A stretch of 64,000 nucleotides of DNA, taken from positions 1 to 64,000 of the forward strand of contig JACPFF010000005.1 of the NCBI GenBank assembly GCA_016183065.1, written 5' to 3'. Positions within the stretch are counted from its first letter, which is position 1; every line of letters starts with the position of its first letter. Made by a program: the position numbers and the translations under genes. Source of the stretch: Deltaproteobacteria bacterium (GTDB taxonomy: Bacteria; UBA10199; GCA-002796325; JACPFF01). Below the pieces are notes generated by a model. That model worked only from the letters and a program-made list of their open reading frames with translations, did no database searches and was not told the origin of the DNA. Of this stretch, positions 7,145-11,444 are shown in pieces.

Positions 7145-7735
7145 TCACTCAATCCACAACCGCAGTCCCAACGCCTTGAGAATTTTCAGCACATTCGAGA
7201 GGCGGATATCCTGGCCTCCCTTGAATTTGCTCAATGCCACTTGTGTAAGGCCGGTTTTTTCGGCGAGGGTGCGGATGGTCATCCGTTGTTGTGCCACATG
7301 CGCAAAGACCACTGCCGCGGCCTCTTGCGGGCGCTCGACGATGACGGTCTTGGAGGTCCAGGCCTTTCCGAAAAGTTGTTCCACACATGGTCGGTATTTG
7401 GCATCGAGCCGTGCCAAATGGAGCATGTGCTCCTTGCTCAGACGCGACAGCATGAGAAAGCTGACAATGGGCGTCTGCAAGAGCTGGTTGATATTGTCGA
7501 TCATCAATCCCGAACGTTTTGCATCCCATCGTCCACGTGTCAGCTGTTGAAAATACGCGAAGTGCTCATCGCCTCGCGGATCACGATCGAACACCAGTTG
7601 CAACATATGCGAGCCTGACGCATGACCCGAAATGTTTAGCTGATCCCAGATGACGCGCTTGATCGCCGTCTGGAGGCACAACTGGGCAGCATTCACGAAC
7701 AAATCGATCTGCACTTTGTCTACCGGCATTGTCAT
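7145..7735 (-). CDS. XRE-like HTH protein, probable antitoxin/regulator of the upstream kinase
   Basis: C-terminal MTIRTLAEKTGLTQVALSKFKGGQDIRLSNVLKILKALGLRLWIE; ATGA overlap with 7732..8460. Confidence 0.75.
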   Translation of the reverse strand: MTMPVDKVQIDLFVNAAQLCLQTAIKRVIWDQLNISGHASGSHMLQLVFDRDPRGDEHFAYFQQLTRGRWDAKRSGLMIDNINQLLQTPIVSFLMLSRLSKEHMLHLARLDAKYRPCVEQLFGKAWTSKTVIVERPQEAAAVVFAHVAQQRMTIRTLAEKTGLTQVALSKFKGGQDIRLSNVLKILKALGLRLWIE

Positions 7736-8460
7736 TGTGATTTCCGATACAACGCAAAAACATCCTGCAATGTTGCCACGGTCCGCATCTGCTGGAGACG
7801 GCGCTGTAATGCTTCTTGTTCGCCCCCGTCCCGCAGGGGGACGAGCTCCGGCAATCGCTGCTGCAGTTGCGCAATACGCTGTACCATATCACTTTTTGGT
7901 TTCTTGTGCAGCGCAGTACGGCACGCAATCTCAAAGAGCTGGAGGTAGTGGGGCAGGCTGCCATCATATCGAAGAAAACCGTGTGCGGAATCGATCAAAA
8001 TGATCCGGCGTTGCACAAAGTCATACAAATAATTTGCATCATGACGATCGATTTGTCCGGTCAACCAATCAAAACAGGCGCACTCAAAGACATTGTCGAG
8101 ATCCAACGCGAGCGGACCCTGGTCAGTGATGAAATGATGGGCATCCGGCAGATCCAACCACAGCTGCACGGTGGTCATGCGACCAAGGAGAACCAGCGGC
8201 GGGTTTTCAAGACCGAGCGCCTTCGCGACTCGATAGGCCCACCATTCACGCTCTGCAAGTGAACCACTCTTTACGGGAATCTGGCACTCACGGTGATTGC
8301 GTTCAGAGACCCGTTTCCAAAACAGCTTGCCGATTTTTGTCTGGTACAATCGCTGAATCGCGGTCTGACCTCGGGAAGGATAGTGCTCAAGGGCCAGTGG
8401 CACCATCTTCCCATGGGCCAGCGCCGATTGAATGCGCTTGAGAGTGAAGTCGCTCAACAT
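7732..8460 (-). CDS. HipA/PI3-4-kinase-like atypical kinase
   Basis: Catalytic-like GQIDRHDANYLYDF (HxxN) and metal-binding-like RIILIDSAHGFL; AEREWWAYRVAKALGL N-lobe-like helix. Confidence 0.6.
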   Translation of the reverse strand: MLSDFTLKRIQSALAHGKMVPLALEHYPSRGQTAIQRLYQTKIGKLFWKRVSERNHRECQIPVKSGSLAEREWWAYRVAKALGLENPPLVLLGRMTTVQLWLDLPDAHHFITDQGPLALDLDNVFECACFDWLTGQIDRHDANYLYDFVQRRIILIDSAHGFLRYDGSLPHYLQLFEIACRTALHKKPKSDMVQRIAQLQQRLPELVPLRDGGEQEALQRRLQQMRTVATLQDVFALYRKSQ

Positions 8461-8466
8461 GGAATA

Positions 8467-8476
8467 AAGTATACTT
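8467..8476. promoter_or_regulatory. Palindrome AAGTATACTT upstream of kinase-XRE operon
   Basis: Perfect 10-bp palindrome 6 nt upstream of the ATG at 8460. Confidence 0.3.
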
Positions 8477-8527
8477 AATAAATTATAGTTTATCAATAAT
8501 AGTTTTCTTTCTTGTTTTCTTTCTCCC

Positions 8528-8864
8528 TTAATGGTGAGAAGCGGCCAACGGTCCATCCGGGCGGACATGAGGTGCCAGCACGGCGTACGGGATCACCATT
8601 TCTTGGGGCCCGACCGCATAGGGGGCCACCTGGTAGAGATCAAAGGTGCTCCGCAATCCCTCTGGCGTGACACTCCATCGCACAAAATTTTCTCGGGTCG
8701 GTGCCACCCCTTCGTCGAACAACCTGCCGTTCGACCACCGATACCTTGTCGGGCACTGCCGGCACCGTGGATGTCGCCGGTGACACGGCCGCGCCGGGCG
8801 GCGCGCTATGGCACACACTGGCGCAGAGCATGCCGACGGAACCGCACATCATGAATAATCGCAC
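8528..8864 (-). pseudogene. DUF3298-like exported protein, frameshifted remnant
   Basis: Signal peptide MRLFMMCGSVGMLCASVCHS in one frame; LRSTFDLYQVAPYAVGPQEMVIPYAVL (DUF3298-type C-terminus) in another overlapping frame. Confidence 0.55.
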
Positions 8865-10982: not shown

Positions 10983-11444
10983 TCACTTTTCCGAGAGACT
11001 CTCGTCCGAAAGCTGTTCCAAATCGGCAAGGTCTTTATGTCTCCCTGTTACTGCCTTATTGTGTTTCAAGGTTTCTTTGTCGATAAAAAATACTGTCACG
11101 TTGCCATACGCCCCAGGTAAACGCGTTTGCCAAGCGGCATCAAACTCGATGCCGCTCGCATCGTTGATCAGATCGACCCGATTTGGAGGTTGTCCGAGTT
11201 GTACGACCATCCCTTGCGTCAACAAATCACTATCGGAAATGGCGAGACTGCCAAACCCAAAATCGTGCAGAGCCGAGAGAATGGACCGAGCATTTTCTGA
11301 ACTACGCCGATAATAGAGATCTAAGTCCTGCGTATAGCGGGGTGCGCCATGAAATGCCACCGCATAGCCCCCGATCACCAGATATTCAACGTGATGGTCG
11401 TTGAAATACGCGAGCAGTTCTTCGAAATCCTTGTTGGTCTCCAT
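10983..11444 (-). CDS. Nucleotidyltransferase (MNT/DUF6036-like)
   Basis: YLVIGGYAVAFHGAPRYTQDLDLYYR NTase motif; HKDLADLEQL. Confidence 0.85.
   Translation of the reverse strand: METNKDFEELLAYFNDHHVEYLVIGGYAVAFHGAPRYTQDLDLYYRRSSENARSILSALHDFGFGSLAISDSDLLTQGMVVQLGQPPNRVDLINDASGIEFDAAWQTRLPGAYGNVTVFFIDKETLKHNKAVTGRHKDLADLEQLSDESLSEK

What the first reader, a model, noticed from the sequence alone, without database searches (positions are those of the whole stretch)
7145..8460. Atypical kinase + XRE-like pair resembling HipBA in reversed order
The kinase carries PI3/4K- or HipA-like signatures (RHDAN and LIDSAHGF) but is far shorter than HipA. It precedes and overlaps by ATGA a protein with a C-terminal HTH and about 130 extra N-terminal residues. 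Toxin-first order with a large N-terminal antitoxin domain is unlike classical hipBA.
Basis: partly seen in the sequence, partly recalled or inferred. Interest (0 to 1): 0.62.

Follow-up and report, generated by a model that had tools for sequence, protein, structure and literature searches.

The report
Compact HipA-like kinase toxin–antitoxin module
This two-gene module pairs a very small HipA-like protein kinase with a DNA-binding partner and its own dedicated DNA switch; it recurs in unrelated places in at least 13 related bacterial species and looks like an undescribed variety of kinase toxin–antitoxin system, untested at the bench.

Summary
On the minus strand a 242-aa kinase-like gene (K, 7732-8460) overlaps by ATGA a 196-aa protein with a C-terminal Cro/C1 HTH (H, 7145-7735). 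Thirteen full-length K homologues (46-67% identical) occur in 13 of 46 genomes of the phylum; all have H directly downstream, and neighbouring genes differ from locus to locus. Lys49, Glu72, Asp138-Arg-His-x-x-Asn143 and Asp157 are invariant. Profile comparison and a bridging phage family place K remotely in the HipA clan, but no member reaches the HipA_C cut-off, the HipA N-terminal domain is absent, and H's N-terminal ~130 aa match no known domain, including HipS. I also found a conserved promoter-operator: overlapping 16-bp palindromes (ATAAAnTATAnTTTAT, 14-bp period) covering -35 and -10, usually 6-9 nt before K's ATG. In 46 genomes it occurs only at K/H loci or a relic. Decay is asymmetric: K-truncated/H-intact and H-only remnants exist; K without H was not seen. 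Best reading: an autoregulated, mobile kinase toxin–antitoxin module working like HipBA but a separate family. Toxin-first order is not novel in itself (hipAB, hipEB, hipIN, hipJS are published). Toxicity, neutralisation and substrate are untested; structure predictions failed.

The parts
7732..8460 (-). K: compact HipA-clan kinase, 242 aa, putative toxin
7145..7735 (-). H: putative antitoxin/autorepressor, 196 aa, ATGA overlap with K
7346..7735 (-). H N-terminal domain (residues 1-130), no Pfam/NCBIfam family; not HipS-like by profile comparison
7160..7294 (-). H C-terminal Cro/C1-type HTH (residues 148-192); best solved relatives are HipB antitoxins at profile level
8362..8382 (-). YPSRGQT (K residues 27-33), conserved; proposed nucleotide-binding loop with invariant Ser29 (inferred equivalence to the HipA Gly-rich loop)
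   Evidence: equivalence inferred
8314..8316 (-). Lys49, invariant, proposed ATP-binding Lys
   Evidence: role inferred
8245..8247 (-). Glu72 in the LAEREYWA helix, invariant; aligned with the HipA helix before LG(I/L)xxP
8032..8049 (-). Catalytic loop DRHDAN (Asp138-Asn143)
7975..7998 (-). Metal-binding motif LIDSAHGF (Asp157 invariant)
   Evidence: role inferred
8464..8496 (-). Promoter-operator TTGATAAACTATAATTTATTAAGTATACTTTAT: two overlapping 16-bp palindromes (8478-8493 and 8464-8479), 14-bp period
8491..8496 (-). -35 hexamer TTGATA, inside the operator
8468..8473 (-). -10 hexamer TATACT, 17-bp spacer, ending 7 nt before K's ATG (leaderless or near-leaderless mRNA predicted)
   Evidence: start site inferred

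Best explanation
K-H is a self-contained, horizontally mobile, autoregulated type II-like toxin-antitoxin module. K is a minimal HipA-clan Ser/Thr protein kinase; free K most likely arrests growth by phosphorylating an essential translation component (an aminoacyl-tRNA synthetase, by analogy with HipA and HipT; this last step is inferred). H binds K through its N-terminal domain and, through its C-terminal HTH, binds paired palindromes over K's promoter, so that H or the K-H complex represses the operon. K is translated first, probably from a leaderless or near-leaderless mRNA, with H made by translational coupling. Shown: sequence conservation, strict pairing, mobility, operator conservation and specificity, asymmetric decay. 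Inferred: toxicity, neutralisation, H-operator binding, substrate.
For: 13/13 intact K have H directly downstream; 8 of 13 show exact ATGA overlap as listed, one more on re-reading H's start, the rest lie within a few tens of nt; flanking genes are not shared. Kinase residues invariant in 13/13. HipA-clan kinship: all 13 members match phrog_3162 (best 1.3e-6), a family that also matches true short HipA kinases (3e-10); hhalign to short HipA kinases P=2.7e-5, score 42.4, versus at most 18.6 in 20 column-shuffled controls; 12/13 touch HipA_C weakly. H's HTH profile hits HipB first in the PDB (1.5e-5). Operator at every locus with upstream sequence; once in the own genome; 26 hits in 12 of 46 genomes, all at K/H loci except one genome where an H remnant lies beside it, reversed-pattern control 0. 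K cut to 76 aa with H intact in L028. K and H trees share the same supported three-member clade joining different taxonomic families.
Against: No experiment; no toxin homologue close enough for transfer of function; no K member passes the HipA_C cut-off; no usable structure (pLDDT 38.6 and 41.5). Strict pairing plus autoregulation could also describe a signalling kinase with its own repressor. Correlation of K and H divergence is moderate (r=0.44, 9/10,000 permutations). Only three decayed loci were seen.
Confidence: 0.72

Rival explanations
1. A mobile regulatory pair: K phosphorylates H or another regulator to switch transcription, without being toxic.
For: Kinase-plus-HTH pairing and a dedicated operator would look the same; H has invariant Thr153 and Arg155 next to the HTH.
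Against: The operator occurs only at the module itself, so there is no visible regulon; locations are unrelated; K is lost while H is kept, K without H never seen.
Confidence: 0.15
2. An abortive-infection defence module: K is a growth-arrest effector released when a phage product disturbs H, as proposed for the Stl-type HipR/HipF-G pairs. This is a refinement compatible with the best explanation.
For: Patchy presence, horizontal movement, large unassigned N-domain on H; the idea is published for hipRF/hipRG (PMC8262856).
Against: No PADLOC family match of weight; no consistent defence-island neighbourhood seen.
Confidence: 0.3
3. K is a small-molecule kinase (for example a lipid or metabolite phosphotransferase) with a repressor; the HipA/Fam20/PI3K resemblance is only fold-level.
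For: Pfam matches split between HipA_C, Fam20C and PI3_PI4_kinase, all sub-threshold; best PDB hits are Fam20.
Against: Closest profile links are HipA kinases and phrog_3162; HipB-like HTH partner; TA-like mobility and decay.
Confidence: 0.1

Closest known systems
HipBA (E. coli, Shewanella) and reversed hipAB / hipEB
   Same: Kinase with DxHxxN catalytic motif paired with a Cro/C1 HTH partner, HTH closest to HipB; palindromic operators upstream; kinase-first order already known for hipAB and hipEB (PMC8262856).
   Different: K is 242 aa against about 405-440; no HipA N-subdomain-1 (PF13657); PF07804 below cut-off; H carries about 130-145 extra N-terminal residues; operator is AT-rich ATAAAnTATAnTTTAT, not TATCCN8GGATA (PMC3376134).
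HipBST and core-kinase Hip families (HipG, HipM, HipI, HipJ)
   Same: Kinase lacking N-subdomain-1, glycine-rich-loop region near the N terminus; hipIN, hipJS and hipMP place the antitoxin downstream.
   Different: Published range 279-321 aa for G/M/I/J; their antitoxins carry HipS, HIRAN, Stl or resolvase-like domains, whereas H's N-domain shows no profile similarity to HipS.
Short HipA_C kinase plus fused HipS(Couple_hipA)-HTH antitoxin found in the same phylum (L136, L137, L138)
   Same: Kinase-first pair, partner about 200-210 aa with an N-terminal inhibitory-type domain and, in two of three by Pfam, a C-terminal HTH.
   Different: Kinase passes HipA_C (about 1e-18 to 1e-22) and partner passes Couple_hipA; K and H pass neither.
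phrog_3162 (phage proteins of unknown function, 247 positions)
   Same: All 13 K members match; similar length; also matches HipA-like kinases.
   Different: Weak matches (best 1.3e-6); no phage or viral locus with a real K or H relative found.
Fam20 secretory-pathway kinases
   Same: Catalytic region G(N/Q)(M/I)DRH aligned over about 100 residues.
   Different: E about 0.01 only; eukaryotic, secreted, no HTH partner.

Membership tests
HipA (hipBA toxin) | HipA_C domain (PF07804) above curated cut-off | tested here: not met
   12/13 members match weakly, best E 0.00099; window protein 14.7 bits against 30.5; K loci absent from the PF07804 genome hits
HipA (hipBA toxin) | HipA N-terminal domain / N-subdomain-1 (PF13657) | tested here: not met
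   no match in any of 13 members, whereas true HipAs here match at 1e-22 to 1e-24
HipA clan (broad) | remote homology over the kinase core | tested here: met
   hhalign to short HipA kinases P=2.7e-5, score 42.4, versus shuffled controls at most 18.6; phrog_3162 bridge
HipA clan (broad) | catalytic Asp-x-His-x-x-Asn loop, metal-binding Asp, ATP Lys conserved | tested here: met
   invariant in 13/13; assignment of Lys49 and Asp157 to these roles is inferred
HipBST | separate HipS (Couple_hipA-like) antitoxin between HipB and HipT | tested here: not met
   no such gene; H N-domain not HipS-like by profile
Type II toxin-antitoxin module | strict adjacent co-directional pairing with overlapping or near-overlapping genes | tested here: met
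   13/13
Type II toxin-antitoxin module | autoregulatory operator at own promoter | tested here: inconclusive
   conserved locus-specific palindromic operator; binding by H not testable here
Type II toxin-antitoxin module | toxicity of one partner neutralised by the other | not testable with these tools
   needs expression assay
Type II toxin-antitoxin module | mobility / patchy distribution in unrelated genomic sites | tested here: met
   14 of 46 genomes with intact or truncated K, no shared neighbours, tree mixing of families

The most novel reading that the evidence does not exclude
K-H founds a new Hip-clan toxin-antitoxin family: the smallest core-kinase toxin of the clan described so far, neutralised by a new N-terminal antitoxin domain unrelated to HipS, controlled by a tandem palindromic operator built into a promoter that makes a leaderless toxin mRNA.
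Probability: 0.55. Interest if true: 0.62.

Novelty: new variant of a known kind. Interest (0 to 1): 0.52.

Why it matters
It would extend the Hip kinase toxins below the size thought typical, supply an inhibitor domain of a new kind for asking how Hip kinases are held in check without HipS or N-subdomain-1, and offer a compact, independently recurring system whose operator is so well conserved that DNA binding and autoregulation can be tested directly.

Tried and rejected
Viral contigs, phages and plasmids gave no relatives (the phage and plasmid hits at E 2-10 were chance or HTH-only). H N-domain as HipS: rejected. H-profile hits beside full-length HipAs in four genomes were essentially HTH matches; the partner there, where Pfam was run, is HTH plus DUF1488. 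The G005 'K' hit (E 0.004) is probably chance: it lacks most of the motif. Comparison with YjjJ-type kinases gave nothing. The genome-contig scan used one sequence and found only one relative although others exist in the phylum, so absence outside this phylum is not shown.

Full report
The described genes are present. K occupies 7732-8460 and H 7145-7735, both on the minus strand, overlapping as ATGA. A longer ORF for K starts at 8568, but the alignment of homologues and the conserved promoter immediately upstream favour the ATG at 8460. From single sequences the kinase call is marginal (Fam20C 0.01, HipA_C 0.025, both below cut-off), while the HTH of H is clear.

Homologues settle that the pair is real. 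Fourteen of 46 genomes of the phylum match K; 13 are full length, the window's included (pairwise 46-67% identity), and one is truncated. Every full-length K has H directly downstream on the same strand. All 14 full-length H lie at these loci; one further genome, G004, has a solitary decayed H fragment. Except for scattered matches among more distant genes, neighbouring genes are not shared between loci. The K and H trees share a supported three-member clade (G000, G002, G044) drawn from three taxonomic families, while G043, of the same family as G044, is among the least similar to it (47%, rank 77 of 78 pairs), so the pair appears to move together horizontally.

Kinase identity. Lys49, Glu72, Asp138, Arg139, His140, Asn143 and Asp157 are invariant, as is YPSRGQ. 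Profile-profile comparison with short HipA kinases of the same phylum aligns the Glu72 helix and the DRHDAN loop (P 2.7e-5, score 42.4); 20 column-shuffled controls reached at most 18.6 and the reversed one 8.5. All 13 members match phrog_3162 (best 1.3e-6), which also matches HipA-like kinases. The match to full-length HipA was weaker (P 0.0013). So K is a remote HipA-clan kinase, not a HipA: PF07804 is not passed and PF13657 is absent. Equating Ser29 with HipA Ser150 or HipT Ser57/59 (PMC10627512) is my inference.

H. Its HTH profile has HipB as best solved relatives (1.5e-5). The preceding 130-145 residues match no Pfam or NCBIfam family convincingly and show no profile similarity to HipA N-subdomain-1/HipS. 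In the same phylum a second kinase-first pair exists in which the partner has a Couple_hipA (HipS-like) domain, in two of three with a Pfam HTH behind it. By analogy H's N-domain is likely the part that holds the kinase; this is inferred.

Promoter-operator. Upstream of each K lies a sequence like TTGATAAAgTATAgTTTATaAAgTATAcTTTAT, two or more 16-bp palindromes ATAAAnTATAnTTTAT with 14-bp period; L027 starts at a contig end and could not be checked. It contains -35 TTGATA, a 17-bp spacer and a -10 such as TATACT (in L022 the -35 is degenerate); in ten of 13 loci the -10 ends 6-9 nt before the ATG, predicting leaderless or near-leaderless mRNA; in three it lies 33-53 nt upstream. In the window the 16-mer occurs twice at up to 2 mismatches, against 0.02 expected. 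In the own genome the 33-mer at up to 3 mismatches occurs once. In 46 genomes there are 26 hits in 12 genomes; 11 of these are K/H loci, and the twelfth, G033, has the operator with a 19-residue H remnant 224 nt downstream and no K; the reversed-pattern control has none. The motif was derived from these loci, so the shuffle test is descriptive; the genome-wide count with its control is the better test.

Decay. In L028 K is cut to 76 aa, losing the catalytic core, while operator and H are intact; G033 and G004 keep only H remnants. K without H was not seen. This is the asymmetry expected if K is harmful without H, though the numbers are small (three decayed loci).

Comparison with the literature. 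Gerdes et al. (PMC8262856) describe ten Hip gene organisations, including kinase-first ones, so order alone is not new; their short kinases are 279-321 aa. The E. coli HipB operator is TATCCN8GGATA with four sites (PMC3376134). I found no published description of this family in the searches made, which cover open-licence papers only.

Limits. No structure, no experiment, and distribution outside this phylum is unresolved: the phylum itself is unnamed here, one relative being deposited as 'Nitrospira sp.'.

Noticed in passing
L136:1022-2429, L137:1273-2800, L138:591-2127: A second kinase-first pair in the same phylum: short HipA_C kinase overlapped by a partner with an N-terminal HipS-like (Couple_hipA) domain, fused in two cases to a recognisable HTH; a HipS-HTH fusion was not among the organisations I read in PMC8262856.
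   Followed up: partly
L043:1105-2747 (own genome, contig C29): Reversed-order hipAB: a full HipA followed by an overlapping HTH protein with a C-terminal DUF1488 domain; the same arrangement by eye in L081, L084 and L076.
   Followed up: partly
L020:1658-4669: A classical hipBA lies immediately upstream of a K-H module on the same strand.
   Followed up: partly
L133:4846-5158 (G033): Relic: operator plus a 19-residue H start fragment, kinase gene gone.
   Followed up: yes
window 8528-8864: Remnant of a DUF3298 protein split between frames (C-terminal half of the domain in 8531-8818, signal-peptide-like start in 8643-8864), apparently broken, just upstream of the module.
   Followed up: partly
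window 10983-11444 (-): DUF6036-type nucleotidyltransferase, possibly part of another toxin-antitoxin pair.
   Followed up: no
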